Source: Luteitalea pratensis (GTDB lineage: Bacteria; Acidobacteriota; Vicinamibacteria; Vicinamibacterales; Vicinamibacteraceae). Taken from it: DNA of 64,000 bases. Of this stretch, positions 16,815-30,091 are shown one piece after another (the first letter of the stretch is position 1; each line of letters starts with the position of its first letter). Both the position numbers and the translations under genes were made by a program. Below the pieces are notes generated by a model. The model had not been told where the DNA came from. It worked only from the letters and a program-made list of their open reading frames with translations, and did no database searches. The stretch lies in the NCBI RefSeq assembly GCF_001618865.1, contig NZ_CP015136.1:5367001-5431000 (forward strand). Reading direction: 5' to 3'.

Positions 16815-16855
16815 CCCACGCGCCTGATCGTCGGTTGGCCGACCAGGCGCGTGGG
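16815..16855 (-). terminator. Strong stem-loop after the capsid gene
   Basis: A 12-bp outer stem (CCCACGCGCCTG / CAGGCGCGTGGG) continues into a 5-bp inner stem with a 4-base loop, 21 bases past the capsid stop. No U-run follows. It may be a terminator or an mRNA-stabilising hairpin for the abundant capsid message. Confidence 0.55.
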
Positions 16856-16875
16856 TGCATTGGGTGCGTTGATGC

Positions 16876-18093
16876 TTACTTCTTGCCTGCCGGTGCTGGC
16901 ACCTCGGCTCGTGTGCCGCCAGCACCAGGCGTAATGATCTGCGTGCCTTCGGTGTGCAGCACGCCGATGTCGAAGCGCATGGTCATGCGAATCACGGTGC
17001 TGTCGCGGTCGAACAGGTGCGACTCGTCATACCGCAGGATCACCTGATTCCTGATGCCGACCGCGATGGTCTGCATGTCGCTGACGACGCACGCTGTGCC
17101 GACATGTGGCGTGACGAACACGGGCACGCCGAACAGGCGCTTGACCGCGTCTCCGCTCGGATCGGGATTCAGCTGGTACCGCGTGTCGCCATCCTTCGCG
17201 AGACGCAAGGCACCCCACGTCGCACTCGACAGGAAGATCGCGCTCGGGGTCAGGTTCGCGCCCTCGACACGCTGGATCGCGCCTGCAATGGCGTCCAGGT
17301 CAATGGCTCCCACGAGTGGCGTGGTGACGATGCCGGGCTGGTTCAGGATGCCGCGCACGTTCGGCGGCGTGCCGTTGCCAGTGAACGCCTGCGTATCGAA
17401 CAGGTCGCCTCCGGCCTTGTACAGATCCTGCTGAATGTACGCCCGCCCGTCTGGCACCGCATCGGCCAAAAACTCGTTGCTCGCGGGCACCATGACCGCA
17501 CCCTTCTGCGCGGTCAGTACCACCTGCTCGAAGGTGGTCGCGGACTGCGGGATCGGTGCACCCTCCAGCACCATACCTGCAAGGACGCCACTGGCCGCCT
17601 TGGGAATGTTGAGGACGTGTGACGTCATCGTGAACACACGCGGTTCGGCGTCCAGAAAGACCGATCTGGCCCGAATGGCCTCGATCACCTCGGGCAAGTG
17701 CTGCACGGGTACCGCAAAGCCGCCCTCACTGGGGATGCCTTCGGACTGGCCTGCGCGAACCTCAGGCGAGGTCGGCAGCCACACCGCCTGCTCGTGACGC
17801 AGCAGGCCTCGACGCTCGATGCCACTAGCAGTCGAGCGCGTGCGACCAGCACCGGCATCGCTCACCACACTGCGAAACTCTGGAGTGCTGCCGTTCGGAT
17901 TGGTGAACCGTGCGAGTGCCTGTGAGGCCTCGGCCTCAGCCTCGGCATCGGTGGTGTACTGGCGTGCCCGTGCCATCAGCGAGTCGTACTGGCTGCGTTC
18001 CTCAGTCGTCAGATCGCGATTGGCTGCGTCGGCTGTCTCGTGAATCGTTCGCGCCTCGGTCAGAGTCCGAGCCGCGTGCTTGGCTGCAAACAT
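16876..18093 (-). CDS. HK97-fold phage major capsid protein
   Basis: This 405-residue protein starts at an ATG with a GAGGTGA Shine-Dalgarno. Residues 1-65 are helical and charged, like the delta (scaffolding) domain that the prohead protease removes. The HK97 fold follows, with SEGGFAVPVQHLPEVIEAI, a long middle segment containing NEFLADAVPDGRAYIQQDL, QAFTGNGTPPNVRGILNQPG, and the C-terminal FGVPVFVTPHVG..VVSDMQTIAVGI part typical of the family. Size matches HK97 gp5. The protease gene lies immediately upstream, in the usual order. No portal or terminase gene is present, so packaging would need a helper phage or is lost. Confidence 0.94.
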   Translation of the reverse strand: MFAAKHAARTLTEARTIHETADAANRDLTTEERSQYDSLMARARQYTTDAEAEAEASQALARFTNPNGSTPEFRSVVSDAGAGRTRSTASGIERRGLLRHEQAVWLPTSPEVRAGQSEGIPSEGGFAVPVQHLPEVIEAIRARSVFLDAEPRVFTMTSHVLNIPKAASGVLAGMVLEGAPIPQSATTFEQVVLTAQKGAVMVPASNEFLADAVPDGRAYIQQDLYKAGGDLFDTQAFTGNGTPPNVRGILNQPGIVTTPLVGAIDLDAIAGAIQRVEGANLTPSAIFLSSATWGALRLAKDGDTRYQLNPDPSGDAVKRLFGVPVFVTPHVGTACVVSDMQTIAVGIRNQVILRYDESHLFDRDSTVIRMTMRFDIGVLHTEGTQIITPGAGGTRAEVPAPAGKK

Positions 18094-18269
18094 AAGTCAC
18101 CTCGTACAGATGAACGCGTCAACCAGGCGCACGGACTCGCGAGCACGTTCCTGACGATCAACGCCTGACGAACGATCCTGACGGCTCGGTGCCGCGTGTC
18201 GTCGCGTGCGGATCGCGTGCGTTCGCTGCGTGTGTCGCGTGTCGCCTCGGTGACGCAGGTGATGTGCGA

Positions 18270-18905
18270 CTAGCGAATCGCTCGCAGTCGCACCGTCAGT
18301 GCGTCGAGTTCACGCGCACGCAGCTGGCGACTCTCACACGTCACCAGTTCGGCTGCGTACTCGAGCGCACGAGGTTCGATGATCACGCCAGCCTCGCGAT
18401 ACGCAGGCCACGCGACAATCGACAGTTCAAAGACATCCACGTCGAGCAGCTGGCGCACTGGTGGTCGCGTGTCTGGCAGCCACTTGTCCGCGATGGTGCG
18501 AAAGCCGAACGAGACACCATCGAGATCGCCACGTCGCACCGACTCGATCAGATCGTGACCAGTCGGGCTGTTCGGTGGCTGCAACTCGAAACGCAAGCCG
18601 ATGGCGTCTGGTATCAGTGTCAACGTGCCCGAGCGTGTCGAGCCGATCACCTTGGTGGGATCGTGGCCGATCAGTGCCTTGACGTCGCGACGTTCGCGCA
18701 AGCGTGCGAGCGCACCAGGTATCACTTCCTCGACGAACTCGGCACCGTTCGCGCCGTGCATCGGTTCACTGCGTTCGTTGAACCGTACCGCATAGCCCGT
18801 GAGCATCGGACCCTCGGCCCGATCCTGCAGACGTGCAGCCTCAGGCAGGCCACGTCGCTCCAGTGGCTGGCGTGTGTTACTCGTCTCACTCGTTGTCGTC
18901 GTCAT
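18270..18905 (-). CDS. HK97 family prohead protease
   Basis: This 211-residue U35-type serine protease matures the capsid by cutting off the scaffold domain. Motifs include GYAVRFNERSEP, EEVIPGALARL, catalytic His81 in IGHDPTKVIGST, Ser132 in LDGVSFGF, and the final conserved strand FELSIVAWPAY (about 159-169), which supplies the acidic residue of the triad. Length is normal. It starts at an ATG with a GGAG Shine-Dalgarno, and the capsid gene follows 176 bases downstream. The intact protease and capsid pair implies selection to keep the head-forming function. Confidence 0.93.
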   Translation of the reverse strand: MTTTTSETSNTRQPLERRGLPEAARLQDRAEGPMLTGYAVRFNERSEPMHGANGAEFVEEVIPGALARLRERRDVKALIGHDPTKVIGSTRSGTLTLIPDAIGLRFELQPPNSPTGHDLIESVRRGDLDGVSFGFRTIADKWLPDTRPPVRQLLDVDVFELSIVAWPAYREAGVIIEPRALEYAAELVTCESRQLRARELDALTVRLRAIR

Positions 18906-18969
18906 CTGCGCTCCGTTGTCCGTGCGTGTGTGCGTGGCACGAGCAAGAGGCAGCGATCAGTGCATTGTG

Positions 18970-19236
18970 TCAGTGACTCACACCAGCCTGCACCTCGACG
19001 ATGGTGGTCCGTTCGGGTGCCAGCATCTGCGCGATGCGGATGGCTGCACTCGCACACCGTAAGCGCATGTGATCCGATCCAGCTGCGGCCATCTGGCACA
19101 CGTCGGCTGCAGCCTGCAACGCCGCGAACGGCTTCGCGAGTGGATCGCACGCACTGTCGGCGATCAGCCGCACGATGTCGAGTGCCAGTGCATCCATCTC
19201 TGGCTCCAGTGGGTTCGGTGTGTCAGTCGTCGGCAT
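18970..19236 (-). CDS. Small hypothetical protein upstream of prohead protease
   Basis: This 88-residue, mostly helical, acidic protein reads LEPEMDALALDIVRLIADSA..AALQAAADVCQMAAAG. An AGGAAG Shine-Dalgarno lies inside the end of the preceding gene, whose stop is four bases from this start, which supports coupled translation. It sits where phages often encode a terminase-related or regulatory small protein, but no family is recognised. The helical content could allow dimerisation. Function unknown. Confidence 0.62.
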   Translation of the reverse strand: MPTTDTPNPLEPEMDALALDIVRLIADSACDPLAKPFAALQAAADVCQMAAAGSDHMRLRCASAAIRIAQMLAPERTTIVEVQAGVSH

Positions 19237-19240
19237 GATC

Positions 19241-19483
19241 TTACGCTTCCTGTTTGGGTGTCAGTCGATCAGTCGCCGTCGTCGGTGCTGCTGGTCGGAC
19301 TGTCGGTCTCCAGTTCAGCACCGTGATCAGCCGACAGCCGTTCGCCTCGCGTACGTGGTACCGAGTCGCGTACCAGGTGCGAGGCGTGGTGGTGTTTCCG
19401 TTCACTGCCGACACAGGCGTCTCGACGCGTGGTGGTGCCTCGCGGTAGCGTCCGAAGAACTCATCGAGATTCATCCACAGCAC
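19241..19483 (-). CDS. Small hypothetical protein of the element
   Basis: A GTG start at 19483 with GGGGAG seven bases upstream gives 80 residues; an ATG three codons in is the alternative. The N-terminus (MNLDEFFGRYREAPPRVETP) is acidic, followed by a beta-prone middle (TWYATRYHVREANGCRLITV) and a Pro/Thr-rich tail. It is followed four bases later by the 88-residue gene. I recognise no family. It begins just after the AGATCT-rich repeat region, so that region may contain its promoter. Confidence 0.52.
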   Translation of the reverse strand: MLWMNLDEFFGRYREAPPRVETPVSAVNGNTTTPRTWYATRYHVREANGCRLITVLNWRPTVRPAAPTTATDRLTPKQEA

Positions 19484-19563
19484 ATCCGTTCTCCCCTCTG
19501 ACTCGTCCGTTTCGCACGCGCACGGGAGTACGCCCGTAGTACTCCCTAGTCCGTCTTAGAACC

Positions 19564-19608
19564 CTTAGATCTCTTAGATCTCTTAGATCTGATCTAGATC
19601 TTCTAGAT
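19564..19608. repeat. Iteron-like tandem repeats (CTTAGATCT x3) and AGATCT palindromes
   Basis: Three perfect 9-bp units lie at 19564-19572, 19573-19581 and 19582-19590. Two further CTAGAT-containing motifs run up to the stop codon of the winged-helix gene. The block is AT-rich against its surroundings and adjoins the gene most like a replication initiator. It is a candidate origin or operator. GATC sites within it could be methylated. Confidence 0.6.
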
Positions 19609-20670
19609 GCGACCAGCTTCACGTCGCTCGCGTTCCTCGGCCGCACTGATCGAGTCACCCCACTGCACCTCGACATCGTGGAACGCCTGCGTCCACACAT
19701 CAGCTTGGTGACTCAACCATGCGTACCACGCCTGCGTCTCTTTCGTGTGGGGACGGTACCGCAGCCGATAGACCGTCTGCAGCGTGGCCTGCGGCACCAT
19801 ATGCGCTGGCAGTGGCAACAGGACCACCGTGCCTGTGGCCTGCAGTGCCCGCACGTCGTTCCAGGCGTCGTGGTTCTTGCGCAGCATGGCCTGCACGACG
19901 GCCTCCGCAGCTGTTCCGACACGTGCCTCCTCTGGTGTGTCGTGCCCTTGCCACTCCGCAGGCCAGAACGTGATCGCCGTGGCCGCATCAGCGTCCGCAG
20001 ACTCGGCAAGGCGCAGCACGCGGGTCAGCAATCCTGTCGCCCTCAGATCCTTGCAGCGGCACCACCACGCGTCGTAGTTGTCGGTACCGGACGCACCTGC
20101 ACGCACCACGTGCGGTCTGATCAGATCGTCGTCTGGTGAGAGTGGCGTGTGCAGGCTGTGATTCGATGTGAAGGCGACCACGTGCCATGCCGGTGAACGG
20201 AACAGGACGTGCTTGTCCCATCGTTCGTGGAGCACGCATGGTGGGAGGCCACCGACACCGGGCAGATCGTGACGTTCGTACATGTCGACGAACAGGCGCA
20301 GCAACATGGGATCGGCGTATTCCCGCAGCAATTCCATCGGCGGCACGCGATTCCCTTCAACACCGAACACCACCGATTGCGGCACCCACGCGAAGATCCC
20401 AGCGCCGCTGTCGACAATGCTCCGCAGTCCGTCGCGAATCGACCTGACGAGTCCTTCTGCCTCCAGCGCCTGCAGTGCCTGCCGTGCCTGTGCTTTTGAC
20501 ATGCCGACGTGTGTGGCAATGCCGGTGGCACCCCATTTCGTCGTCGTCGTCTTACCCATGCGGCCCAGGTTCAGGCACACGAACGCCAGCGCGGCATTCA
20601 TGCCGAGCGCGCACGCACGTGCCCACTGGCGCACATCGATGCGAGCGAAACGCGACTCGTGCCCGGTCAT
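19603..20670 (-). CDS. Winged-helix protein, possible replication initiator of the element
   Basis: This 355-residue protein starts at an ATG with a perfect GGAGGTGA Shine-Dalgarno and overlaps the preceding gene by four bases. The N-terminal 80 residues look like a winged helix: LAFVCLNLGRMG, then a GIATHVGMSKAQARQALQAL helix-turn-helix and EAEGLVRS wing. The rest has aromatic-rich segments (YDAWWCRCKDLRATGLL, AWYAWLSHQADVW) that I do not recognise. DNA binding plus a downstream iteron-like array suggests a replication initiator, but no Rep, primase or helicase motif is visible. A transcriptional regulator is the alternative. Confidence 0.65.
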   Translation of the reverse strand: MTGHESRFARIDVRQWARACALGMNAALAFVCLNLGRMGKTTTTKWGATGIATHVGMSKAQARQALQALEAEGLVRSIRDGLRSIVDSGAGIFAWVPQSVVFGVEGNRVPPMELLREYADPMLLRLFVDMYERHDLPGVGGLPPCVLHERWDKHVLFRSPAWHVVAFTSNHSLHTPLSPDDDLIRPHVVRAGASGTDNYDAWWCRCKDLRATGLLTRVLRLAESADADAATAITFWPAEWQGHDTPEEARVGTAAEAVVQAMLRKNHDAWNDVRALQATGTVVLLPLPAHMVPQATLQTVYRLRYRPHTKETQAWYAWLSHQADVWTQAFHDVEVQWGDSISAAEERERREAGRI

Positions 20671-20861
20671 CGCGTCACCTCCGGCCTACCATTGGGGCCG
20701 TGCTCGACGACGAGGCTGTGATCGCGTGGCGCATCCGACGCTTCGCGAATCTGCCTCAGTCGCTCCAGCACGGCGGCGAGATCATCGAGGCCGCACCTGA
20801 GGTGGCGCAGCACCTCGTGCGCTTCACGTTCCAGCGCAGCACGCTCGTGGTGCGCAGTCAT
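20667..20861 (-). CDS. Small helical protein, coupled operon middle gene
   Basis: The ATG at 20861 (GAGGCGG upstream) gives 64 residues, and both ends overlap the neighbouring genes by four bases in ATGA fashion. The sequence is a single long charged helix with heptad-like leucines (EREAHEVLRHLRCGLDDLAAVLERLRQI), suggesting a coiled coil, perhaps an oligomeriser or accessory factor for the following winged-helix protein. No family is recognised. The tight coupling on both sides is the main evidence that it is translated. Confidence 0.6.
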   Translation of the reverse strand: MTAHHERAALEREAHEVLRHLRCGLDDLAAVLERLRQIREASDAPRDHSLVVEHGPNGRPEVTR

Positions 20862-21130
20862 CGCCGCCTCGCCACAACGTCGAGCACGCACCTTGCGAGT
20901 TCCTCACCGGTCATGCCGACGACACCGGCGAGGTTGTGCAATAGCTCAGTCCGCACCGCCTTCTGTGCGTCGGTGGCCTGCGTCTGCACCGGATCGGCCT
21001 TGATGCGCTCGGCGGCATCCTGCGCCCAGAACATACACGTTGCGATGCGATCCTTTTCCGCCCAGTACGCTTCGCCTTCCTCGTCGTGCACGTTGGGGTC
21101 GCCAGATGGCGTAATATCGGTTTCGTTCAT
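20858..21130 (-). CDS. Small acidic protein, first gene of the coupled operon
   Basis: This 90-residue protein starts at an ATG with a GAGGAC Shine-Dalgarno. It has an acidic N-terminus (DPNVHDEEGEAYWAEKDRI) and a helical C-terminus (MTGEELARCVLDVVARRR). It opens a three-gene overlapping operon ending in the winged-helix protein, and an intrinsic terminator-like hairpin separates it from the HTH regulator upstream. Function unknown. Position just after the regulator suggests an early gene of the element. Confidence 0.62.
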   Translation of the reverse strand: MNETDITPSGDPNVHDEEGEAYWAEKDRIATCMFWAQDAAERIKADPVQTQATDAQKAVRTELLHNLAGVVGMTGEELARCVLDVVARRR

Positions 21131-21171
21131 CGTTCTGTCCTCTGCTCACGCTACGCACGTGAGTCGAAATC

Positions 21172-21209
21172 ACGCCTCGGTCTTGCCACAGACCGAGGCG
21201 TCGTGTTTT
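21172..21209. terminator. Intrinsic-type hairpin between regulator and operon
   Basis: An 11-bp perfect stem (ACGCCTCGGTC / GACCGAGGCGT, 8-base loop) is followed on the plus strand by CGTGTTTT. On the minus strand, the direction of local transcription, it is followed only by GATTTC. It separates the HTH gene (stop at 21226) from the operon starting at 21130. Confidence 0.6.
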
Positions 21210-21225
21210 GTGATCACATAACCTG

Positions 21226-21678
21226 TCACTTACGTGCGGAGCGCAGTGCTGGTGTGGCCATGCCGTGCACGATCCAGTTCTGCACGGTGGCGCGAAACCA
21301 CGCTTTGTGCCCACCAGGTAGCACCTTGTCTGGCTCAGGAAAGTAGTCATCCCTGATCCAGCGCCACAACGTCCCACGTGACTTGCCCACCATTACGCAC
21401 ACCTCCGGCGTGTCCAGTAGCACCCACGGATCGATGGGTGTGATCGGTTCACGAGCCACCGTGTTGCTGGCCAGCGGTGGCGGGCTGGTGCGATCCCCGT
21501 TCAACCAGGACAGGATGGCGCTGTGCTGGATGCGTCGGTCGCCACGGTGTGAGGTCTGGCACGCTCGGAGTTCTCCACGCTTGATCGCACGTCGCACAGA
21601 CGCAGGCGTAATGCGCAGTGCCTTTGCGAGTTCGGCAGGCGTGGTCGGATCGGGCAGCTGCTGGATGCGCTCGAACAT
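21226..21678 (-). CDS. Tandem helix-turn-helix regulator (excisionase-like plus AlpA-like)
   Basis: This 150-residue protein carries two separate MerR/excisionase-type DNA-binding folds. Residues 13-60 (TPAELAKALRITPASVRRAI, ending in SAILSWLNG) resemble HTH_17 excisionases. Residues 86-138 (LLDTPEVCVMVGKSRGTLWR, then FPEPDKVLPGGHKAWFRATV) resemble AlpA regulators. AlpA-like proteins switch on satellite and cryptic-prophage functions and act as excision factors. Fusing two such domains suggests binding to paired sites, perhaps the GGGGTCC-type repeats near the integrase. The gene has a GAGGGA Shine-Dalgarno and lies next to the integrase gene, as expected for a recombination directionality factor. 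Confidence 0.82.
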   Translation of the reverse strand: MFERIQQLPDPTTPAELAKALRITPASVRRAIKRGELRACQTSHRGDRRIQHSAILSWLNGDRTSPPPLASNTVAREPITPIDPWVLLDTPEVCVMVGKSRGTLWRWIRDDYFPEPDKVLPGGHKAWFRATVQNWIVHGMATPALRSARK

Positions 21679-22040
21679 CGTGATCCCTCATGCGTCGAGC
21701 ACAGGTGCTCGACCCACCGGATGGGTGGTGTGACTCGAGCGTCGAGTTAACGCACGCTTACGCGTACGCGTGATTGACGCAGCAATACAGAGCAGTTCGA
21801 GTTGGGGGCAACGGCACCGAGCGAGTCAGTGCGAGTCGAGGTCGAGTCGGAGTCGAGGTCGAGAGCGGGGACGTGCCGGGGACGATGATTTGCCCCCAGC
21901 GTCAGGTGCTCGGGCGTCAGCCTACGCCGTGTTTTGCTGAAACGCAATAGGGAAGATTCAGGCGCTGAAATGCCACGAGGGCTGCCAGCGTGTGCGATCA
22001 CGCCACCAGCCCTCGCGATGACCGACGAACACCGAGCGAG
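21679..22040. other. Control region between integrase 3' end and regulator
   Basis: No gene is supported in these 360 bases. It should contain the promoter for the leftward regulator gene. Visible structures are overlapping ACGCGT palindromes (about 21760-21770) and a run of GAGTCG/GGTCGAG direct repeats at about 21822-21862, which may be operator sites. Confidence 0.4.
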
Positions 22041-23261
22041 TTATCCCGCCGACGACACCACGTGTCCGTGTGCCGTTGCTGCTGCTCGCACCACCTCGGC
22101 CCACTGGTGCAAGGCCTGACGCAGTTCAGGCAGGTAGCTGTGCTGGTTGTAGATGCCTGCCACCTTGCCGAGGGCATCAGCGTGATTGAGTAAGCGTCCG
22201 ATCACATGTGGATGCACACCGAGGATCGCCATGTGCGTGGCACAGGCTCGACGCAGATCGTGTCCCTTCGCGTCGGCCACACCCAGTGCCTCAAGGCCTG
22301 TCGTCGTCGAGTGCTCATCCTTCGCGATCTCGACGGCACGCCATGCCCGATAGATGTCTGGTCCTGTCAGCTTGCTGTTCGGGAACACCCACACGCACTT
22401 GAGGGGCACACGGGCACGTTGGCGTGTCAGCACCTCGCGCAGTTCGGGTGTCACTGGCAGCACATGCGTGCGTCCGTTCTTGGGGTCTGGCTGTGTCCAC
22501 AGGTCACCGGCAATGTCTTGCCAGCGCATCGCGGCGATCTCGCCACCACGCTGGCCGAGCAGCAGCCGTAGTCGCAGCTGGTCGGCCTGTGCTCCCTCGA
22601 TCACGCCGTCACGTTCCAGTGTGTCGAGACCATTCCAGAACGTGCCGACTTCCTCTTTCGTGAGCACACGCTTGCGGGCACGTTCTTTCGTCGGCAGCGT
22701 GATCCCTGTGACGGGATTCGCCTCGATCCAATCGTGTTCCAGTGCGTAGCCGAACAGCTTGGAGCACAGCGCCTTGACACGATTCGCTTGCACTGGTGCC
22801 GACAGCTTGACGTGCTCGATCCGTTCGCGCACATCGCGTCGTGTGATCGACGACACCAGGCGTGTGCGCCAATCCGGCATCAGGTGCCGAGTGATGATCC
22901 GCTGGTCGTTGGCCCACGATTTCTTGCGAGGCTTGGCGTAGTGCTCGATGTAGAACTCGGCCAGCGCCTCGAACGTGTTCGCTCGGTCGGTCTGGATCTC
23001 AGCGACGGGATCGCGTCCCTCGTCAACCACGAGCAGCCGTTTGTTGGCCATCGCCCGTGCTTGCGCCAGCGTCATGCGCGTCACGTTCCCAATCGTGAGA
23101 CGGCGTCGAACGCGTCCGACGCGATAGCGGACCACCCACACGGCCTTGTCGGGTCCAATCCGCAGCGACAGTCCCTCACACCCCGCATCCCACACGTCCT
23201 TGCGCTCGGCGTTGTCGGCCAGCAGCTTGGTCACCCTTTGGTCGGTCAGTCTCACACGCAT
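22041..23261 (-). CDS. Tyrosine recombinase / phage integrase
   Basis: This integrase recombines the element with tRNA-Thr. Starting at the ATG 23261 (GGAG eight bases upstream) gives 406 residues. A longer frame upstream would run through the GGGGTCC-type repeats and is rejected. The order is an N-terminal arm-binding domain with LSLRIGPDK and ARAMANKRLL (DUF4102-like), a SAM-like core-binding domain (FEALAEFYIEHYAKPRKKSW), and the catalytic domain. The latter has Arg in LLLGQRGGEIAAMRW, HDLRRACATHM (His-x-x-Arg), the LLNH box and the nucleophile Tyr in IYNQHSYLPE. This is the P4/Sf6-like class that favours tRNA genes. It lies at the end of the element away from the tRNA gene and reads inward. 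Confidence 0.95.
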   Translation of the reverse strand: MRVRLTDQRVTKLLADNAERKDVWDAGCEGLSLRIGPDKAVWVVRYRVGRVRRRLTIGNVTRMTLAQARAMANKRLLVVDEGRDPVAEIQTDRANTFEALAEFYIEHYAKPRKKSWANDQRIITRHLMPDWRTRLVSSITRRDVRERIEHVKLSAPVQANRVKALCSKLFGYALEHDWIEANPVTGITLPTKERARKRVLTKEEVGTFWNGLDTLERDGVIEGAQADQLRLRLLLGQRGGEIAAMRWQDIAGDLWTQPDPKNGRTHVLPVTPELREVLTRQRARVPLKCVWVFPNSKLTGPDIYRAWRAVEIAKDEHSTTTGLEALGVADAKGHDLRRACATHMAILGVHPHVIGRLLNHADALGKVAGIYNQHSYLPELRQALHQWAEVVRAAATAHGHVVSSAG

Positions 23262-23300
23262 CACACGTCTCCAGATGTGGCCGCAGGAACCGTCTCCAGT

Positions 23301-23340
23301 TGGACCCCACTGGGGTCCACTGGGGTCCAATTGGGGTCCA
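23301..23340. repeat. Right arm-type repeats, TGGGGTCCA x3 plus one inverted
   Basis: TGGGGTCCA occurs at 23311-23319, 23321-23329 and 23332-23340, with the inverted form TGGACCCCA at 23301-23309. Spacing is 10-11 bp, one helical turn. The array lies between the integrase start and attR and matches the pair near attL. It could bind the integrase arm domain and also repress the integrase promoter. Confidence 0.75.
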
Positions 23341-23432
23341 AATGGCAATACACACCGAAACGCAGTGTAGCAGTATTTCCTAAGTATTTCGCGAAATAAG
23401 GCCAATCACGCGACAGGATGAAACTCATTTTT

Positions 23433-23482
23433 GCTGATTCGTAATCAGCAGGTCGCCGGTTCAAGTCCGGCCGTCGGCTCCA
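23433..23482 (+). repeat. attR: 50-bp duplicate of the tRNA-Thr 3' part
   Basis: This is an exact copy of 14159-14208 from the anticodon stem to the CCA. The acceptor 5' strand and D arm are absent, so it is not a functional tRNA. It marks the right end of the element. Confidence 0.93.
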
Positions 23483-23686
23483 CGCTAAACACAACAAAAC
23501 ACATACCTTACAGGTCCCCTCCGCAGCCTCTGGCGCTATATCAGTTGCGATTGGTCAACGCATAGTCAACAAGGCGAGGCTAGGAGCAGCCCCGGCGACG
23601 AGTCAGCCTCGGCTGCGCGACGTTCGGCTGCAGACATACAGTCGGATTTTTGATCTGACCGCACTGCTGGGATACTCGACGCCGCC

Positions 23687-26600
23687 ATGCGGGACCCCAC
23701 CACGCCGCGCGTGTTCGTTTCCTACTCGCGCACCGACGGTCTAGAATTCGCACGCCGGCTGCAGACGGCGCTGGAAACCGAGGATCTTTCCCTTTACCGC
23801 GATCTCCACGATCTGGTAGGCGGTGAGGATTGGTGGCGCCAGGTCGAGGCCGCAATTCGTAGCGTCGAGCACGTGGTGCTGGTGTTGTCGCCGGCCGCGC
23901 TGCGCTCGCCCTACGTGGCGCGGGAATGGAAGCTCGCCAGGCAGGAGGGCAAGAAGGTTTCGCCGGTCTCTGGGCCAGGCGCGCTCGACTTCTCACAGTT
24001 GCCGCGTTGGATGGCGCGCGCGCATCGTCATGACATCGACATTCCCGAGAGTCTGGCGAGGCTCGTGCAGGTGCTCAAGGGCCCGGCCGGCGAGAAGCGT
24101 GTGCCCTTCATGGCCGATGCGCTGCCCGAGGGCTTCGTCGCGCGGCCCGAGGAATTCGACCGGCTCAAGCGCAGTCTGCTCGACGCGCGTGGCGAGCCCG
24201 TAGCCATCACTGCAGCGCTGCGTGGCGCTGGTGGTTACGGCAAGACCGCACTCGCCAACGCACTGTGCCATGACAGCGACGTTCAGGAGGCGTTCAGCGA
24301 CGGCATCCTGCGCATTACGCTGGGCGAGAAGCCGGCCGATCTGGTCGGCAGCATCGCCGACCTGATCGAGACCCTCGTCGGCGAACGCCCGGCGTTCCGC
24401 GACATCGACCCCGCCAAGGTCGCGCTCGTAGACGCGCTCGATGATCGCCGCTGCCTGCTGGTGATCGACGATGCCTGGCGTGCCGAGGACCTGGCGCCGC
24501 TCTTGTATCGCGGACTGAGGAACCAGACCACGCGGCTCGTCACGACGCGCGACGATCGCGTCGTGCCGCGGGAGGTTCCCCGCATCGCCGTGGACGCGAT
24601 GCAGTCGGGGGAAGCGCAGGCCATGCTGTCGCGCGGAATGCCCCCGGAGACGGCGGCGGCGCTGCGGCCACGGCTCGCTTCGCTCGCTGGTCGGCTGGGC
24701 GAGTGGCCGTTGGTGCTCGGCCTGGCCAATGGCGTAGTGCGGACCCGGATGTCGCGCGGCGCGACCGTCGGCGATGCGCTTGCCTACGTCGAACGCGCGA
24801 TCGTGCACCGCGGGCTCGCGCAGGCATTCACGCCCGACGAACGCGCGTCCCGACGCCTTACCGCCTGGGGCACCTTGGAAGTTAGCCTCGAGCAACTCCG
24901 CACAGACGAGCGCGCGCGCTTCGCGGAACTCGCGGTGTTCGTCGAGGACGCCGAGATTCCCACGAGCGTCGCGCTTGGCCTGTGGCGGCAGACCGCGGCA
25001 CTCGATCCACTCGATGGCGAGGATCTGCTCGTGCGCCTGGCCGACCTGTCGTTGTTGGTGGAACTCGATCTCGGCCGCGGCGTGCTGCGTCTCCACGACG
25101 TCGTGCGCACCCTGCTGCGCGACGGGCCGATCGCGGGGCGCCTCTCGGAGCTCGACCGCCTTCTGGTGACGCACTACCGAGAGGCCAACGACGGCGACCT
25201 GGCAGCGCTGAGAGATGTCTACGGCCTACGGCACCTGATGGCACATCTGAACAGCGCGGGTGAGCTCCAAGTGGCGCGGGGGCTGCTCACCGATCCGGCA
25301 TGGCTCGCGAACAAGCTGCACCGCCTCGGCATCCAGCCGCTCCTTGCCGACTACGCCACGCTATCGCATCGTGACGCGACGCTGGACCTCGTCCGCGGGT
25401 CGCTCAGCTTGGCTGCTCCGGCGCTCGCGCGCAATGCAGGCGAGCTTGCCCAGCAACTCCTCGCACGCCTCGCGCCTGGAGATGCCAAGGGGTTGGACAA
25501 GTTCCTCGCGCACACGCGACGTCTGCTCGTACGTCCCACCTTGGTGCCACACCGTCCGACCTTCACGCCGCCTGGCGCCGAGCTGCGCCGGTACGAGGGA
25601 CATGAAGAGAGTGTCACCAGCGTGACAGTCCTGGCCGACGGGCGACGCGCGCTCTCGGGGTCTAGGGACCGCACGCTGCGACTCTGGGATCTCGACACCG
25701 GCGCTGAGCTGCGCCGGTACGAGGGGCATTCGGAGTGGGTCACGAGCGTGACCGTGCTGGCTGACGGACGCCGCGCTCTCTCGGGGTATTCCGACGGCGC
25801 CCTGCGGCTATGGGATCTGGAGACCGGCGCCGAACTGCGACGGTTCGAGGGCCATGACAACGTGGTCACGAGCGCGACCGTGCTGGCTGACGGCCGTCGC
25901 GCTCTCTCGGCATCCGCGGATTGGACGCTGCGGCTCTGGGACCTCGAGAGCGGCGCGCAGCTGCACCGCTTTGACGGGCACGAAGATTGGGTCGCCAGCG
26001 TGGCCGTGCACGAACGCTACGTACTCTCGGGGTCCTCGGACCGTACGCTGCGCCTCTGGGATCTCGAGACCGGCGTTGAGCTACGTCGGTTCGAGGGGCA
26101 CGAAGGCATGGTCACCAGCGTGACGGTACTGGCCGGCGGGGGCCGCGCGCTCTCGGGGTCTTGGGACCGCACACTCCGACTCTGGGACCTCGAGACCGGC
26201 GCCGAGTTGCGACGGTTCGCGGGCCATGACAACGGGGTCACGAGCGTGACCGTGCTGGCTGACGGCCGTCGCGCACTCTCGGCATCCGAGGATCGGACGC
26301 TGCGGCTCTGGGATCTCGACACCGGCGCCGAGCTGCGCCGGTTCGAGAGCCATGCAGGGCCGGTCACTAGCGTCACGGCGATGGCCGATGGGCGCCGCGC
26401 AATCTCGGCGTCCTGGGATCGGACGCTGCGGCTCTGGGATCTCGAGGCAATGCCCGAGCTGCCACGCTTTGGGGAGCACGAAGACAGGGTTAGTAGCCTG
26501 GCAGTGCTGGCCGACGGCCGTCGCGCACTCTCGGGGTCGTGGGATCGCACGCTGCGGCTGTGGGATCTCGAGACCGGCGTTGAGCTACGTCGGTTAGAGG

Positions 26601-27469
26601 CGCACCAGGGCCTCGTTACCAGCGTGACAGTCCTGGCCGACGGCCGTCGCGCACTCTCGGCATCCGACGATCAGACGCTGCGGCTGTGGGATCTGGAAAC
26701 CGGCACCGAACTGCGGCGGTTCGAAGGCGATGACAGGGGAGGGAACTGCATAACGGTATTGCCTGGCGGGCGTAGTGCACTTCTTCGGACTGACGGTACG
26801 TTTCTGTCTGACGGTACAACGCTGCTGCTGTCGGCACTCGAGACCGGCGTTGAGCTGCGTCGGTTCGAGGGGCACGAAGGTAAGGTCACCAGCGTAGCGG
26901 TGTCGGCCGACGGACGCCGCGCTCTCTCGGGGTATTCCGACGGCACACTGCGGCTATGGGATCTGGAGACCGGCGCCGAACTAGGACGTTTCGGGCAGCA
27001 TGAAGGTTGGGTCACGAGCGTGACCGTGCTGGCTGACGGCCGTCGCGCACTCTCGGCATCCGAGGATCGGACGCTGCGGCTCTGGGATCTCGACATGGGT
27101 GTCGAGCTGCACCGGTTTGCGGGACATAGAGCGTCGATCAACAGCGTCACGGTGCTGGCTGACGGCCGCCGCGCGCTCTCCGCGTCTGAGACGTTGCGGC
27201 TCTGGGATCTCGAGACCGGCGTTGAGCTACGTCGGTTCGAGGGGCACGAAGGCATGGTCACCAGCGTGACGGTACTGGCCGGCGGGGGCCGCGCGCTCTC
27301 GACATCCGACGATCAGACGCTGCGCCTCTGGGATCTCGAGACCGGCGTCGAGTTGGCGCGACTGACCTTCGATGCCTTGCCATATTCGCTCGCGTGGTCG
27401 TCGCAGCGAGGCGCCGCCGTGGTCGGCGATGCCCGCGGACGCGTGCACGTGATCGACCTCATCGAATGA
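23687..27469 (+). CDS. TIR / NB-ARC / WD40 NLR-like protein, candidate anti-phage sensor
   Basis: This intact 1260-residue protein has an APAF-1/NLR plan. A TIR domain (about 7-100) with FVSYSRTDG and putative NADase Glu80 in SPYVAREW comes first. The NB-ARC follows: Walker A GAGGYGKTA (180-188), Walker B CLLVIDDAW (256-264), the sensor TTRLVTTRD and WPLVLGL. Then come a winged-helix part (LAVFVEDAEIPTSVALGLW) and an APAF-1-like helical linker. The rest is about 14 WD40 repeats (630-1220) plus a degenerate one. In such proteins the propellers sense a ligand, the NB-ARC oligomerises, and the TIR depletes NAD. Context beside a phage-type element fits abortive-infection defence. The trigger is unknown, and a signalling role cannot be excluded. 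Confidence 0.9.
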   Translation: MRDPTTPRVFVSYSRTDGLEFARRLQTALETEDLSLYRDLHDLVGGEDWWRQVEAAIRSVEHVVLVLSPAALRSPYVAREWKLARQEGKKVSPVSGPGALDFSQLPRWMARAHRHDIDIPESLARLVQVLKGPAGEKRVPFMADALPEGFVARPEEFDRLKRSLLDARGEPVAITAALRGAGGYGKTALANALCHDSDVQEAFSDGILRITLGEKPADLVGSIADLIETLVGERPAFRDIDPAKVALVDALDDRRCLLVIDDAWRAEDLAPLLYRGLRNQTTRLVTTRDDRVVPREVPRIAVDAMQSGEAQAMLSRGMPPETAAALRPRLASLAGRLGEWPLVLGLANGVVRTRMSRGATVGDALAYVERAIVHRGLAQAFTPDERASRRLTAWGTLEVSLEQLRTDERARFAELAVFVEDAEIPTSVALGLWRQTAALDPLDGEDLLVRLADLSLLVELDLGRGVLRLHDVVRTLLRDGPIAGRLSELDRLLVTHYREANDGDLAALRDVYGLRHLMAHLNSAGELQVARGLLTDPAWLANKLHRLGIQPLLADYATLSHRDATLDLVRGSLSLAAPALARNAGELAQQLLARLAPGDAKGLDKFLAHTRRLLVRPTLVPHRPTFTPPGAELRRYEGHEESVTSVTVLADGRRALSGSRDRTLRLWDLDTGAELRRYEGHSEWVTSVTVLADGRRALSGYSDGALRLWDLETGAELRRFEGHDNVVTSATVLADGRRALSASADWTLRLWDLESGAQLHRFDGHEDWVASVAVHERYVLSGSSDRTLRLWDLETGVELRRFEGHEGMVTSVTVLAGGGRALSGSWDRTLRLWDLETGAELRRFAGHDNGVTSVTVLADGRRALSASEDRTLRLWDLDTGAELRRFESHAGPVTSVTAMADGRRAISASWDRTLRLWDLEAMPELPRFGEHEDRVSSLAVLADGRRALSGSWDRTLRLWDLETGVELRRLEAHQGLVTSVTVLADGRRALSASDDQTLRLWDLETGTELRRFEGDDRGGNCITVLPGGRSALLRTDGTFLSDGTTLLLSALETGVELRRFEGHEGKVTSVAVSADGRRALSGYSDGTLRLWDLETGAELGRFGQHEGWVTSVTVLADGRRALSASEDRTLRLWDLDMGVELHRFAGHRASINSVTVLADGRRALSASETLRLWDLETGVELRRFEGHEGMVTSVTVLAGGGRALSTSDDQTLRLWDLETGVELARLTFDALPYSLAWSSQRGAAVVGDARGRVHVIDLIE
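25588..27354 (+). repeat. Internal 126-bp-type WD40-coding repeats, about 14 units
   Basis: The units of about 42 codons (LRRFEGHxxxVTSVTVLADG type) are strikingly alike at DNA level. 26054-26155 and 27200-27301 are identical over 102 bases. Units 2, 4 and 5 resemble units 11, 13 and 14, an offset of nine repeats, which points to recent block duplication or conversion inside the gene. Confidence 0.85.
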
Positions 27470-27869
27470 CGACGTCCGACTGATTGCTGGGTACGACCTT
27501 CTAGCGTCAGGCTGCGCGCATGGCGGGCAGCGAAGACCAGAACGTGTTGCCGGACGAAGCTGCTCCCCCGGGAGCGCTCCCCGGACTTCGCAGAGACGTC
27601 CTTGCTCGTCCCCTGCAGCTTCCGCCCGGGCCGCAGCTATCTCGAGGACTTCTGTTGATTCTGCGAGATGAACTCGCGAATCGCTCCCACAAACTCTGGA
27701 CGCCCCGGCGCCCCACGCGCGCCACCGTGAGTTGCACCGGTAGGACAACCACCTTGTTCTACCCGTGGACGCGCCTTCGCGCTTGAGCACGCGGATCAGC
27801 AGGCCCCCGAGGACCCGGACGAGTAACGGGCGGCCAACATCTTCTGTTTTCTGACGACTCCTCAGGCGA
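27470..27869. other. Gap of 400 bases without a supported gene
   Basis: Open frames exist on both strands, but none has a family match I recognise, a convincing Shine-Dalgarno or a consistent product. It may hold decayed accessory DNA downstream of the NLR-like gene. Confidence 0.4.
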
Positions 27870-29021
27870 TCACTTCGCCGACCCGCGATTGCCGTTGAGC
27901 GCCGGCAGCTCCAGCAGGAAATAGGACAGGCTCGCAAGCGCCAGCGAGAGCGGGGCGCACACCAGGAAGGTCTTCCACACCGGCCAGGCGAACACCTCGT
28001 GGCAGATGTAGATCAGCGGATAGTGCCAGAGATACAGGCCGTAGCAGATGGCGCCCAGGTACAGCGACACCGGGTTCTGGAACGCGAAGCGCAGGCCCCA
28101 GCCGGTCGGGGTCTTCAGGAAAGACATGATGAGCGCCAGCGACAACAGTACGTAGAAGTGCTGTTGCCAGGCATACCAGGCCGGCACGACGACGTTCATC
28201 CGGGCGGCGCCCCACACCATCACGGCGACCATCGCCCACACCAGCCACGGCCGCGCGAGCCACGCGCACGCCGCCTGCACGGGCCGTGTGTCGAAGGTGA
28301 TGGCCAGCAAGGCGCCCAGTGCCAGGCTGTCCAGGTGCATGTCGGTGCCGTTGTACATCCGTTCCCAGTTCGCCCCATGCAGCGCCAGCCACGAACGCCA
28401 CGCCATGGTGGCCACCATCACCCCGCCGAGCGCGACCGCCCAGAAGGCCAGGCGCAGTGGCCGCTTGCCCGCCGCCGGCGCCACGCCACGTCCGCTCAGT
28501 GCGAGGAGGAGCCCGAAGATCGCCGGCCACAGCAGGTAGTACTGCTCCTCGATCGAAAGCGACCAGGTGTGCCCGATGTAATTCTGGTGCGGCACCCCGA
28601 AGGCGCGCAGCCAGTTGGCGAAGTAGAACAGCGTGCCGGCCACGTTCAGCAGTAGGGACGCGCGGTGCCCGAACCCCACCACGAAGAACAGCGCGATCGG
28701 GATCACCATCGCCAACAGCGCGGGGTACAGGCGGCGCAGGCGCCGCACGTAGAACGACGCGTAGTGGATCCTGCCGTCGGTGTGCCAATCCTTGAGCAGC
28801 AGCCGCGTGATGAAGAAGCTGCTCATCATGAAGAACGCGTCCATGAACAGGATGGCGCCCGGCAGCCACTCGTAGGAAACGTGCGCGACGAAGACGCCGA
28901 TGGTCATCAGGCCACGCATGCCGTCCAGGGCGGGCCAGCGCGCAGACGAAGGCCGGACCGGCGAGTCGGCCACGACCGGCGTGGCCGCAGCCGCCTCAAA
29001 CCGAGGATGGGACGTCGACAT
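27870..29021 (-). CDS. Acyltransferase 3 (OafA/YrhL) family membrane protein
   Basis: Starting at the ATG 29021 gives 383 residues with about ten transmembrane helices. The N-terminal RWPALDGMRGLMTIGVFVAHV contains the family's Arg and His (AxRGxxxxxxxxxH-like), and RRLRRLYPAL follows on the next cytoplasmic loop. HTWSLSIEEQYYLLWP is the central family motif. These proteins O-acylate surface polysaccharides, lipids or antibiotics. Nothing nearby reveals the acceptor. The gene stands alone on the minus strand with non-coding DNA on both sides. Confidence 0.92.
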   Translation of the reverse strand: MSTSHPRFEAAAATPVVADSPVRPSSARWPALDGMRGLMTIGVFVAHVSYEWLPGAILFMDAFFMMSSFFITRLLLKDWHTDGRIHYASFYVRRLRRLYPALLAMVIPIALFFVVGFGHRASLLLNVAGTLFYFANWLRAFGVPHQNYIGHTWSLSIEEQYYLLWPAIFGLLLALSGRGVAPAAGKRPLRLAFWAVALGGVMVATMAWRSWLALHGANWERMYNGTDMHLDSLALGALLAITFDTRPVQAACAWLARPWLVWAMVAVMVWGAARMNVVVPAWYAWQQHFYVLLSLALIMSFLKTPTGWGLRFAFQNPVSLYLGAICYGLYLWHYPLIYICHEVFAWPVWKTFLVCAPLSLALASLSYFLLELPALNGNRGSAK

Positions 29022-29066
29022 GGTCGCGGCAGGCCCGGGCGCAGGCGTTCGGCGATGCACACACAC

Positions 29067-29425
29067 TCGGCTTCGAGAGCAGATGCGCCCGCAGCATCAC
29101 AAGGTCGTCGTTTCGGTGAAGCGACTCGTTACGACGCCCGTGTCGCCGGAGACGTCCACACGCGCCGTACGGTCCGACAAGGTGGCGGGTAGCCACCGAT
29201 GTCGCGGGTACACGCCTTGCGGCGCCAGGGCCGCATCGATAGGACCCAATCATGGAAGAGGTTACCACGTTCGTCGGCATCGATGCCTACGAGAAGGACG
29301 CAGCATCGAGATCCTGCCGCAGGAGCGGCGATGGTCGCGCGGCCGCCTCACACGACCATCACAAGGCGTGGTCCGGGCGGGCTCGAAGGCCCGCCACTGG
29401 CATTCACGAACGTCCGGGTCTGCCA
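29067..29425. other. Gap without a supported gene
   Basis: I find no recognisable gene in these 360 bases between the acyltransferase start and the truncated hydrolase. It includes the acyltransferase promoter region, and the right part may be remains of the broken hydrolase locus. Confidence 0.35.
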
Positions 29426-29737
29426 TCATTCCGCCGGCAGGGCGACGAGGAGACCGTTGGAGGCGCTCTCGCTGGCCGCTCCGCCGGTCACGGGCTGGAC
29501 ATCGAGCGTAGCGAGGACCGTCCCAGCAAGGCCTTGGACCGCTTCGATCACCGTGCCCGCGCGAGCGACGAGCACGCTGCCGGTGAACTCGCCGTTCTCG
29601 TGCAGTTGCGTCAGCATCCGGCGAATCGTGTCGGTCTGGTCTTGCGGTGATGTCGGCGCCTGCGCTGGCAGCGTGGCGGCGAGGCACGCAACGACGACGA
29701 TGACAGCGAGTGAAACGACCCGGGATCTCACGGACAC
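29426..29737 (-). pseudogene. Remnant of a secreted beta-lactamase-like serine hydrolase
   Basis: A 103-codon frame begins with a good signal peptide (MSVRSRVVSLAVIVVVACLA) ending at LPAQA. A segment typical of the start of class C beta-lactamase-like hydrolases follows (LHENGEFTGSVLVARAGTVI). The active-site SxxK and YxN motifs, which should follow within the next 40-100 residues, are missing. After a short unrelated-looking linker the frame ends with NGLLVALPAE, which resembles a natural C-terminus. The simplest reading is an in-frame internal deletion joining both ends. The alternative is a genuine small exported protein. Confidence 0.5.
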
Positions 29738-29788
29738 TCCCTGGCGCAGCTGTTCGCCGACGGCTGATGTACAACCGCCCGGTAGCGG

Positions 29789-30091
29789 CTACTCGCCCCG
29801 ACGGATGCCCGCGAGCGTCTCTTCGTGCTCGCGCTCGAATCGCGCCAGGTCGCGCCGCAGCTCCTCTTCACGCTCCATGATCGCGGCCGGATCGAAGGTT
29901 CCCGAGACCGCGGTCTGGTGCATGATGCGCCGCTGCGCGACGCGCGCCTCGTACTGCTTCTTCGCCGCGGCGATGGCCTCCCGCTGCGCGTCGGTGAGCG
30001 ACACCTGGGTGATGCCTTTCGCCTCATCCTGCTGCCGCAGCTTCTCCATCACGAGTTCGAGCCGGCTCTTCGGAGCGCCGTCGTTGGTCAT
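29789..30091 (-). CDS. Small coiled-coil hypothetical protein
   Basis: The ATG at 30091 gives 100 residues, almost all helical and charged: SRLELVMEKLRQQDEAKG, a DAQREAIAAAKKQYEARVAQ helix, then MEREEELRRDLARFEREHEE. Two long helices separated by a Thr/Gly loop suggest a helical hairpin or coiled coil in the cytoplasm. A much longer open frame upstream has no protein-like composition and overlaps the oxidoreductase gene antisense, so I reject it. Proteins of this kind look conserved in Acidobacteriota, but I cannot name the family. No operon partner is seen. Confidence 0.72.
   Translation of the reverse strand: MTNDGAPKSRLELVMEKLRQQDEAKGITQVSLTDAQREAIAAAKKQYEARVAQRRIMHQTAVSGTFDPAAIMEREEELRRDLARFEREHEETLAGIRRGE

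What the first reader, a model, noticed from the sequence alone, without database searches (positions are those of the whole stretch)
23687..27469. Bacterial apoptosome-like TIR / NB-ARC / WD40 protein beside a phage-type element
A single intact ORF joins a TIR domain with a candidate NADase glutamate (Glu80 in SPYVAREW), a complete NB-ARC (Walker A GAGGYGKTA, Walker B LLVIDDAW, TTRLVTTRD), winged-helix and helical linker, and about 14 WD40 repeats. This is the APAF-1/NLR plan with a NAD-depleting effector. TIR and NLR-like proteins are established anti-phage systems, but the sensing WD40 arrangement and trigger of this one are unknown. It starts 205 bases outside attR of a tRNA-Thr integration site, a usual place for defence genes. 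The single-gene system could be complete by itself.
Basis: partly seen in the sequence, partly recalled or inferred. Interest (0 to 1): 0.78.

Follow-up and report, generated by a model that had tools for sequence, protein, structure and literature searches.

The report
Bacterial TIR apoptosome-like immune receptor gene
This gene encodes a bacterial look-alike of the animal cell-suicide protein Apaf-1 in which the caspase-recruiting end is replaced by a predicted NAD-destroying TIR enzyme; sensor repeats in its family vary most at nearly the same positions as in fungal self/non-self receptors, so it is probably a fast-evolving alarm that kills or stalls an infected cell.

Summary
ORF 23687-27469 (+, 1260 aa) is intact: TIR (residues 6-131, Glu80 aligned with SARM1's glutamate), NB-ARC, winged helix, APAF1_C helical domain and two WD40 propellers. 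Foldseek ranks full-length Apaf-1 first for both AlphaFold models. It lies 205 bp outside attR of a 9.2-kb phage-type element at tRNA-Thr. One congener lacks the whole 15.6 kb, and GC3 and absence from close relatives point to horizontal gain.

It is not unique. Relatives occur in Pseudomonadota, Chloroflexota, Acidobacteriota, Nitrospirota and an archaeal bin; Glu80 is kept in 43 of 44. I saw no specific partner gene. The general idea (TIR-STAND genes with freshly amplified WD40 propellers as prokaryotic immunity) is published.

What I add: in 11 TIR members with homogenised WD40 arrays, the four codons under diversifying selection in fungal HNWD-type receptors are among the five most variable (pN/pS 1.35, bootstrap 1.11-1.63; 1.20, 1.03-1.41, with the same codons' own pS; 3 of 73,815 four-codon sets vary as much). 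The window alone does not exceed about 1. This suggests a sensor that recognises a variable protein.

Anti-phage function and NADase activity are inferred. Verdict: new member of a known kind, with an unusually testable sensor hypothesis.

The parts
23687..27469 (+). TIR / NB-ARC / winged helix / APAF1_C / double WD40-propeller protein, 1260 aa plus stop
   Evidence: open frame; Pfam; models
23702..24079 (+). TIR domain, residues 6-131
   Evidence: TIR_2 E 8e-20; SARM1 TIR Z 17.4, rmsd 2.2, 124 residues; Hydra TRR-2 TIR Z 17.9
23924..23926 (+). codon of Glu80, predicted catalytic glutamate
   Evidence: aligned with the HKE glutamate of SARM1; E in 43 of 44 relatives
24119..25138 (+). NB-ARC and winged-helix region, residues 145-484
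   Evidence: NB-ARC E 6e-12; NRC1 NB-ARC Z 18.6, 322 residues
24224..24250 (+). Walker A GAGGYGKTA, residues 180-188
   Evidence: kept in 44 of 44, but the motif was part of the selection
24455..24478 (+). Walker B LLVIDDAW, residues 257-264
   Evidence: DD and W in 44 of 44; the motif was one of two scan patterns
24527..24553 (+). sensor-1 motif TTRLVTTRD, residues 281-289
   Evidence: T287 and R288 in 44 of 44
25091..25099 (+). LHD (MHD-like) motif of the winged helix, residues 469-471
   Evidence: H in 37 and D in 38 of 44, 5 gaps
25142..25366 (+). APAF-1 helical domain (APAF1_C), best-scoring stretch
   Evidence: Pfam PF17908 23.3 bits, cut-off 22.8
25574..26440 (+). first WD40 propeller, 7 blades, residues 630-918
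   Evidence: model match to 7-bladed WD40 proteins, Z 48.4, rmsd 0.8
26456..27466 (+). second WD40 propeller, residues 924-1260
   Evidence: closure of this propeller inferred
26708..26851 (+). decayed WD40 repeat 10, residues 1008-1055
   Evidence: model residues 910-957 (protein 1014-1061) pLDDT under 50
26054..26155 (+). 102-bp exact repeat, copy 1 (copy 2 at 27200-27301, about nine blades away)
   Evidence: 0 of 200 codon-resampled arrays reach it
14133..14208 (+). tRNA-Thr (cgt), integration site
   Evidence: ARAGORN
14159..14208 (+). attL, 50-bp repeat in tRNA-Thr
23433..23482 (+). attR, exact copy of the 50 bp
14209..23432 (.). phage-type element between the att copies
   Evidence: PHROG matches to integrase, excisionase/regulator, head protease, major head protein, in four of five element proteins scanned
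23483..29791 (.). second part of the stretch absent from G002, with the TIR gene and an ORF at 27870-29066 that I read as an acyltransferase (not scanned); homology to G002 resumes at 29792

Best explanation
A single-gene, NLR-like suicide receptor. At rest the two WD40 propellers hold the NB-ARC switch closed, as in Apaf-1 (shape predicted by the model). A foreign protein, most likely from a phage or other mobile element, binds the propeller top faces, whose residues are hypervariable (variation shown across relatives; ligand inferred). Nucleotide exchange opens the switch and several copies form a ring (inferred from Apaf-1 and plant NLRs). The clustered TIR domains then cleave NAD+ through Glu80 (inferred from SARM1 and TIR NADases), and the cell dies or stalls before the invader spreads. 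The gene spreads horizontally, and arrays of this family diversify by copying of blades plus selection at the recognition codons.
For: Domain order and motifs. Profile search of solved structures: Apaf-1 first at E 2e-46. Model of residues 1-634, pLDDT 87.8: Apaf-1 Z 22.6 over 467 residues; its TIR matches SARM1 at Z 17.4. Model of residues 105-1260, pLDDT 82.5: full-length Apaf-1 (3sfz, the closed form by recall) first at Foldseek E 6.7e-62, TM 0.62/0.63; active apoptosome chains score TM 0.46 by query length. Glu80 E in 43 of 44. Patchy spread: no full-length match in the other 59 of 60 relatives, four of them congeneric; GC3 0.79 against 0.91 and 0.925 in two neighbours; G002 lacks the stretch. 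Recognition surface, register-checked: in 11 TIR members with homogenised arrays the four fungal codons have pN/pS 1.35 (bootstrap 1.11-1.63), 1.64 after Jukes-Cantor correction, 1.20 (1.03-1.41) against their own pS; 3 of 73,815 four-codon sets vary as much, and only the set itself without the window. Array turnover: 102- and 87-bp exact repeats between distant blades; 7 against 15 repeats in two Nitrospirota relatives 78% alike in the rest.
Against: No activity or phage data exist. The window's own array is not very young (mean nucleotide identity 0.76 among 11 full repeats), repeat 10 has decayed and position 13 hardly varies in it; alone its four codons rank high (90 of 73,815 sets vary as much) but pN/pS is 1.12, or 0.93 against their own pS. 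In seven similar arrays outside my TIR set the four codons are the top set, but pN/pS is 1.24 (0.94-1.75), 1.02 against own pS. Low-identity arrays show none above 1 (0.93 and 0.98). With the seven positions of PMC12222747 pooled pN (0.427) does not exceed their own pS (0.446). Between orthologues only one of three usable pairs shows excess, and that pair lies outside my TIR set. No defence family recurs among 103 scanned neighbours but one model that the WD40 repeats themselves hit. Walker A and B conservation is partly built into the search. Apaf-1 is not among the 50 rows that VIA-align lists for the longer model. No clear ribosome-binding site before the ATG (reading).
Confidence: 0.6

Rival explanations
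1. The same machine, but used for recognition of other bacteria (kin discrimination or response to injected or imported proteins) rather than of phages. The WD40 surface reads a polymorphic protein of neighbours, as fungal het-d and het-e read HET-C.
For: The most variable codons of the family are nearly those of the fungal allorecognition receptors. Fungal HNWD proteins have a TIR-like HET effector, a STAND domain and homogenised WD40 repeats (passages of PMC12222747 and PMC12881547).
Against: Bacterial STAND proteins with known function, Avs and bacterial NACHTs, protect against phage (passage of PMC10907252). The gene lies beside a mobile-element site.
Confidence: 0.15
2. The TIR is a signalling or scaffolding domain: it makes a nucleotide messenger for another effector, or nucleates filaments, without depleting NAD itself.
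For: Thoeris and plant TIRs make messengers (recalled). Weak similarity to Thoeris III ThcB4, 31 bits against a cut-off of 220, and to ThsB, 17 bits. By fold the TIR of Hydra TRR-2 (Z 17.9) is tied with SARM1, and MyD88 is close (Z 16.7).
Against: No specific partner gene recurs among the neighbours examined. The catalytic Glu is kept in 43 of 44. By sequence profile SARM1 is the closest solved TIR.
Confidence: 0.12
3. A STAND regulator of metabolism or development with no immune role, of the AfsR kind, with WD40 as scaffold.
For: AfsR is the next solved STAND family after Apaf-1 in the profile search.
Against: TIR effector, patchy spread and excess variation at the top-face codons of the family do not suit a housekeeping regulator.
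Confidence: 0.06
4. A decaying or cryptic copy: an acquired receptor whose array is degenerating and whose trigger is gone.
For: Repeat 10 has decayed, two repeats have lost two residues, and repeat pS is high. Reported: many highly repetitive WD40 propellers are disrupted soon after origin (passages of PMC9218822).
Against: The 1260-codon frame is open and the catalytic and switch motifs are intact. Exact 102- and 87-bp repeats show copying between blades.
Confidence: 0.07

Closest known systems
Apaf-1 (animal apoptosome)
   Same: NB-ARC, winged helix, APAF1_C helical arm and two WD40 propellers in the same order; first in profile search and in Foldseek for both models
   Different: TIR instead of CARD; bacterial; cytochrome c sensing not expected; oligomer not shown
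Cyanobacterial WRAP: STAND protein with highly repetitive double propeller, coupled to a TIR-STAND gene (Dunin-Horkawicz 2014 as told in passages of PMC9218822)
   Same: STAND plus recently amplified WD40, immune role proposed there; the highly repetitive propeller 2ymu is among the best matches, its identity with WRAP being my recall
   Different: There TIR and the propeller lie in two coupled genes; here one protein carries both
Fungal HNWD receptors het-d and het-e (Podospora)
   Same: TIR-like effector, STAND switch, homogenised 42-aa WD40 repeats, variable codons flanking the same two conserved sites 18 codons apart
   Different: NACHT rather than NB-ARC; allelic polymorphism not testable here; the fungal arrays are more alike inside
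SARM1 and bacterial TIR NADases (SPARTA, AbTIR)
   Same: TIR fold and catalytic Glu by alignment
   Different: Control by NB-ARC and WD40 instead of ARM/SAM or Argonaute
Anti-phage STAND proteins Avs and bNACHT
   Same: Effector - STAND NTPase - C-terminal sensor plan (passage)
   Different: No Avs or NACHT model among the nine PADLOC matches; WD40 sensor and NB-ARC subtype differ
Swarozyc / TEP1 (DUF4062; TEP1 with NACHT and WD40), preprint PMC13174449
   Same: In TEP1 a TIR-like NADase sits in the CARD position of an Apaf-1-like plan; bacterial Swarozyc is anti-phage and was studied with a phage portal protein (passages)
   Different: DUF4062 and NACHT, not TIR_2 and NB-ARC

Membership tests
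APAF-1-like NB-ARC (AP-ATPase) STAND proteins | P-loop, Walker B, TTR sensor and LHD/MHD motif | tested here: met
APAF-1-like NB-ARC (AP-ATPase) STAND proteins | APAF1_C helical domain followed by two WD40 propellers | tested here: met
   APAF1_C 0.5 bits above cut-off; models; second propeller inferred closed
APAF-1-like NB-ARC (AP-ATPase) STAND proteins | N-terminal CARD (animal Apaf-1 proper) | tested here: not met
   TIR in that place
APAF-1-like NB-ARC (AP-ATPase) STAND proteins | nucleotide-driven ring assembly | not testable with these tools
   needs protein
TIR NAD hydrolases | TIR fold | tested here: met
   TIR_2 E 8e-20; SARM1 Z 17.4
TIR NAD hydrolases | catalytic glutamate | tested here: met
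   by alignment, E in 43 of 44; pocket geometry not measured
TIR NAD hydrolases | NAD cleavage | not testable with these tools
   needs assay
Highly repetitive, diversifying WD40 NLRs (HNWD-like) | homogenised repeats with DNA-level copying | tested here: met
   mean nt identity 0.76, 102-bp exact repeat; weaker than the over 80% to 100% reported for HNWD
Highly repetitive, diversifying WD40 NLRs (HNWD-like) | diversifying selection at four top-face codons | tested here: inconclusive
   group of 11 TIR members: pN/pS 1.35 (1.11-1.63), 1.20 (1.03-1.41) on own pS, 3 of 73,815 sets; window alone 1.12 or 0.93; one of three orthologue pairs
Highly repetitive, diversifying WD40 NLRs (HNWD-like) | NACHT domain | tested here: not met
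   NB-ARC 45.8 bits against NACHT 16.2 (cut-off 26.7)
Known anti-phage STAND systems (Avs, bNACHT) | match to a catalogued defence model | tested here: inconclusive
   nine PADLOC matches, none named Avs or NACHT; TIR- and WD40-driven only
Known anti-phage STAND systems (Avs, bNACHT) | protection against phage | not testable with these tools
   needs experiment
Thoeris type III | ThcB4 model above its cut-off | tested here: not met
   31.1 bits, cut-off 220

The most novel reading that the evidence does not exclude
Bacteria possess polymorphic, self-diversifying NLRs: single-gene TIR apoptosomes whose WD40 arrays change by blade copying and by selection at the same recognition codons as fungal allorecognition receptors, giving a fast-evolving repertoire against variable phage (or rival) proteins that travels horizontally.
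Probability: 0.35. Interest if true: 0.75.

Novelty: new member of a known kind. Interest (0 to 1): 0.55.

Why it matters
It is a clear prokaryotic counterpart of Apaf-1 with the presumed killing enzyme built in, so it bears on how apoptosis and NLR immunity arose. The codon pattern tells an experimenter which residues should decide specificity: swap positions 11, 13, 29 and 31 of the blades and see whether the trigger changes. If right, bacterial and fungal receptors solved recognition of a variable partner with the same propeller surface.

Tried and rejected
Close relatives in viral contigs: two scans, none confirmed; phage records: none. So the gene is not known phage cargo in those collections.

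Third att copy right of the TIR gene: none convincing (best 27 of 50 matching at 29763 on the + strand and 29 of 50 at 30263 on the - strand), so I could not show that the TIR gene entered as a second element at the same tRNA.

Conserved partner gene: clustering of 223 neighbour ORFs from 50 loci (12 largest clusters seen) gave syntenic sets in close relatives, one cluster of six and one of three. Five of the six were scanned (not L038's): all carry WD40, NB-ARC is seen in one (L034; only the best 25 families of each were shown); two of them (L029, L070) may be cut-off parts of the receptors themselves. The three (L032, L035, L050) are histidine kinase or response-regulator proteins. For the wide family scans I gave 103 of the 223: four match TIR_2 and four WD40. 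Defence matches were in single members, apart from one model (HEAT-ARM_XIII, four members) that also hits the window's WD40 part. Matches of L052 (kinase part) and L021 (DinG helicase) look generic. L020 does have a type IIG restriction enzyme and a helicase upstream. Without a control set this proves nothing.

Rhizobium homologue followed after one base by an 8xMP membrane gene: considered as a second component, dropped because the 12 largest clusters do not hold it.

A match of the repeat part to a type III effector model, 47 bits against a cut-off of 1243, was dismissed.

Between-orthologue test of the four codons: L027/L032 and L026/L028 no excess, L074/L077 excess (both outside my TIR set); L019/L021 gave no usable repeats.

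Error found in checking: searches had one out-of-register unit for the window (starting at residue 538); no other member of the two high-identity groups was affected. One search drops it; its numbers are the ones used. Earlier values were close (window 67 of 73,815, now 90; group 1.34, now 1.35). still contains it: seven positions, 17 members, 0 of 20,000 random sets (7 of 20,000 for repeat pairs at least 88% alike), peak at zero shift. One search's choice of positions by entropy is circular for its pN/pS.

Limits: repeats were found with H8, [VIL]12, D30 and W/Y/F/L at 36 fixed; leave these four out. Members were grouped by internal identity after seeing the data; the fungal positions come from the papers. 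The register equates fungal codons 8 and 26 with ours 12 and 30 by spacing and by their conservation; fungal letters were not aligned. The scan itself used GAGGYGKT and LLVIDD[AV]W, and the 44 were picked by a P-loop pattern, so Walker conservation is partly by construction; Glu80 was not used in selection.

Papers: all ten searches used. Their listings name no tested bacterial TIR-NB-ARC-WD40 protein that I could see; one search asked for six exact names or PDB codes and found none. Subscription journals are mostly missing there; Leipe 2004 and Dunin-Horkawicz 2014 were not read, only seen cited in passages. Of the papers cited I saw passages only (and the abstract of PMC5587647). PDB 9m0n, a 'tetratricopeptide repeat protein' whose N-terminus matches profile positions 8-183, may be a solved TIR-STAND relative; no paper found.

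I suspect Luteitalea pratensis from its recalled size; one search gave only that species' lineage, no test.


Full report
What is there. The ORF at 23687-27469 (+) is a complete 1260-residue frame. Pfam finds TIR_2 (E 8e-20), NB-ARC (E 6e-12) and APAF1_C just above its cut-off; 12 WD40 stretches follow. By register there are 15 WD40 units: 11 full 42-residue repeats, two of 40, one decayed (no. 10) and a degenerate last one.

Structure. A model of residues 1-634 (pLDDT 87.8, 29 sequences) matches Apaf-1 best (Z 22.6, 467 residues). Its TIR matches Hydra TRR-2 (Z 17.9), SARM1 (Z 17.4, rmsd 2.2, 124 residues) and SPARTA TIRs. A model of residues 105-1260 (pLDDT 82.5, pTM 0.64, 17 sequences) has full-length Apaf-1 as first Foldseek match (E 6.7e-62, TM 0.62/0.63, rmsd 8.6); the active apoptosome chains score TM 0.46 by query length. 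VIA-align's 50 rows for this model are propeller chains, and Apaf-1 is not among them. Residues 630-918 form a seven-bladed propeller (Z 48.4, rmsd 0.8). Repeat 10 is at pLDDT under 50, so the second propeller probably has seven ordered blades (inference). By sequence profile Apaf-1 is the closest solved family (E 2e-46), before AfsR and plant NLRs. The TIR profile puts Glu80 on the glutamate of SARM1's 'HKE' (that this is E642 is recalled).

Family. A scan of one genome for each of 84,980 species gave 190 relatives among 316 candidate stretches; the best 80 were kept as 76 loci. A Rhizobium plasmid protein was added. Of 78 ORFs including the window, 44 pass my pattern for a TIR start followed by a P-loop at the right distance. 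Eight more, whose matches begin at query residues 7-10 (L026, L028, L033, L034, L035, L041, L050, L060), failed it and were not counted. Glu80 is E in 43 of 44 (D in L070); Ser74 and Asp39 are in 44 of 44. Walker A and B are also kept in 44 of 44, but these motifs took part in the selection. Of 31 TIR members whose frame ends inside the locus, 25 have six or more WD40 repeats. Hosts include Pseudomonadota, Chloroflexota, Acidobacteriota, Nitrospirota, KSB1 and a Methanosarcinales bin.

Origin of this copy. In 60 relatives searched (the own genome included), only the own genome has the protein; two others match in the TIR alone. In 396 genomes of the phylum at E 1e-20, one other has NB-ARC relatives, without a TIR match. 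In the tree the window pairs with an Acetobacteraceae protein at 100/99. The group of 11 around this pair (93/97, below the starred threshold) holds eight Pseudomonadota rows, the Rhizobium plasmid row and one Acidobacteriota row beside the window; the other six Acidobacteriota rows lie in a different part. So a proteobacterial source is likely but not firm. GC3 is 0.79 against 0.91 and 0.925 in two neighbouring genes. In congener G002 the tRNA-Thr lies 75 bp from the segment that in the window begins at 29792, so the window's 14209-29791 was inserted here or lost there. G001 has 20.3 kb of other genes in that place, and some of these look alike in G004 by eye. Four of five proteins scanned from the att-bounded element are phage-like: integrase, excisionase/regulator, head protease, major head protein. 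The TIR gene lies outside it, and I found no third att copy.

Sensor. The repeats share DNA as well as protein: exact repeats of 102 and 87 bp join blades about nine and six apart, against at most 40 bp in 200 codon-resampled arrays. Paoletti 2007 (PMC1805685, passages) reports four codons under strong positive selection in fungal NWD repeats, 7, 9, 25 and 27, flanking conserved codons 8 and 26 and lying on the top face. In our register these are 11, 13, 29 and 31 around Val12 and Asp30. In 11 TIR members with mean internal identity of at least 0.65 the five most variable codons are 29, 11, 31, 10 and 13. The four have pN 0.53 against 0.16 elsewhere; pN/pS is 1.35 (bootstrap over members 1.11-1.63) with pS of all free codons, and 1.20 (1.03-1.41) with their own pS. 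Among all 73,815 four-codon sets of the 38 unconstrained positions, 3 vary as much, this set included; without the window only this set. For the window alone it is 90 of 73,815, pN/pS 1.12, or 0.93 on own pS. Seven high-identity arrays outside my TIR set have these four as the top set, with pN/pS 1.24 (0.94-1.75), 1.02 on own pS. The two low-identity groups (11 and 7 members) give 0.93 and 0.98. An earlier run with the seven positions of PMC12222747 peaks at zero shift (0 of 20,000 random sets), though pooled pN there (0.427) does not exceed the positions' own pS (0.446). Among 13 pairs of relatives at least 55% alike in the N-terminal part, the C-terminal part is less alike in 13, in some by a hair, and the pairs overlap. 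In direct orthologue comparison the four codons show excess in one of three usable pairs. So the position pattern is strong and the case for ratios above 1 is moderate.

What is known. Hu 2017 (PMC5587647, abstract and passages) noted that highly repetitive WD40 proteins, half of them bacterial, vary at interaction hotspots; a term search of its text found no NB-ARC, TIR, Apaf or positive selection. Pereira and Lupas 2022 (PMC9218822, passages) describe the WRAP propeller on a STAND protein coupled to a TIR-STAND gene, and tell of a proposed rapid turnover in prokaryotic innate immunity. A 2026 preprint (PMC13174449, passages) reports a TIR-like DUF4062 NADase in human TEP1, likened there to APAF-1, and in an anti-phage system. 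So the kind is known. A TIR effector and a diversifying double propeller in one chain with this codon pattern did not turn up in my ten searches (listed under Tried and rejected).

Judgement. Shown: architecture, conservation of the catalytic residue, patchy spread, and a variation peak at defined codons in the homogenised arrays of the family. Inferred: NADase activity, ring assembly, phage trigger, abortive infection. I rate the finding a new member of a known kind with a sharp, testable prediction about its sensor.

Noticed in passing
window 14209-23432: Compact 9.2-kb element with integrase, excisionase/regulator, head maturation protease and major head protein genes; it might be a capsid-bearing phage satellite rather than a full prophage.
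   Followed up: partly
L102:3818-3893 (G002): In this congener the tRNA-Thr next to the same upstream gene lies on the opposite strand from that in the window and in G001, as if a small segment around the tRNA had been inverted.
   Followed up: no
L007:7956-12063 (Rhizobium plasmid pRL22b6): The homologue is followed after one base by an 8xMP (octameric membrane protein) gene, perhaps a local second effector.
   Followed up: partly
L017:1846-5115 and L022:788-3427: An archaeal (Methanosarcinales) and a Desulfobulbaceae bin carry very close relatives (branches 0.1 each in the tree): a cross-domain transfer or a binning error.
   Followed up: no
L033:292-4362, L034:3525-7592, L051:3799-7557: A second large WD40 protein (1253-1357 aa; NB-ARC seen in L034's) lies directly upstream of the receptor gene, suggesting small tandem clusters of such receptors.
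   Followed up: partly
L020:834-7835: A type IIG restriction enzyme and a helicase gene lie directly upstream of the TIR receptor in an Anaerolineae bin, perhaps a small defence island.
   Followed up: partly
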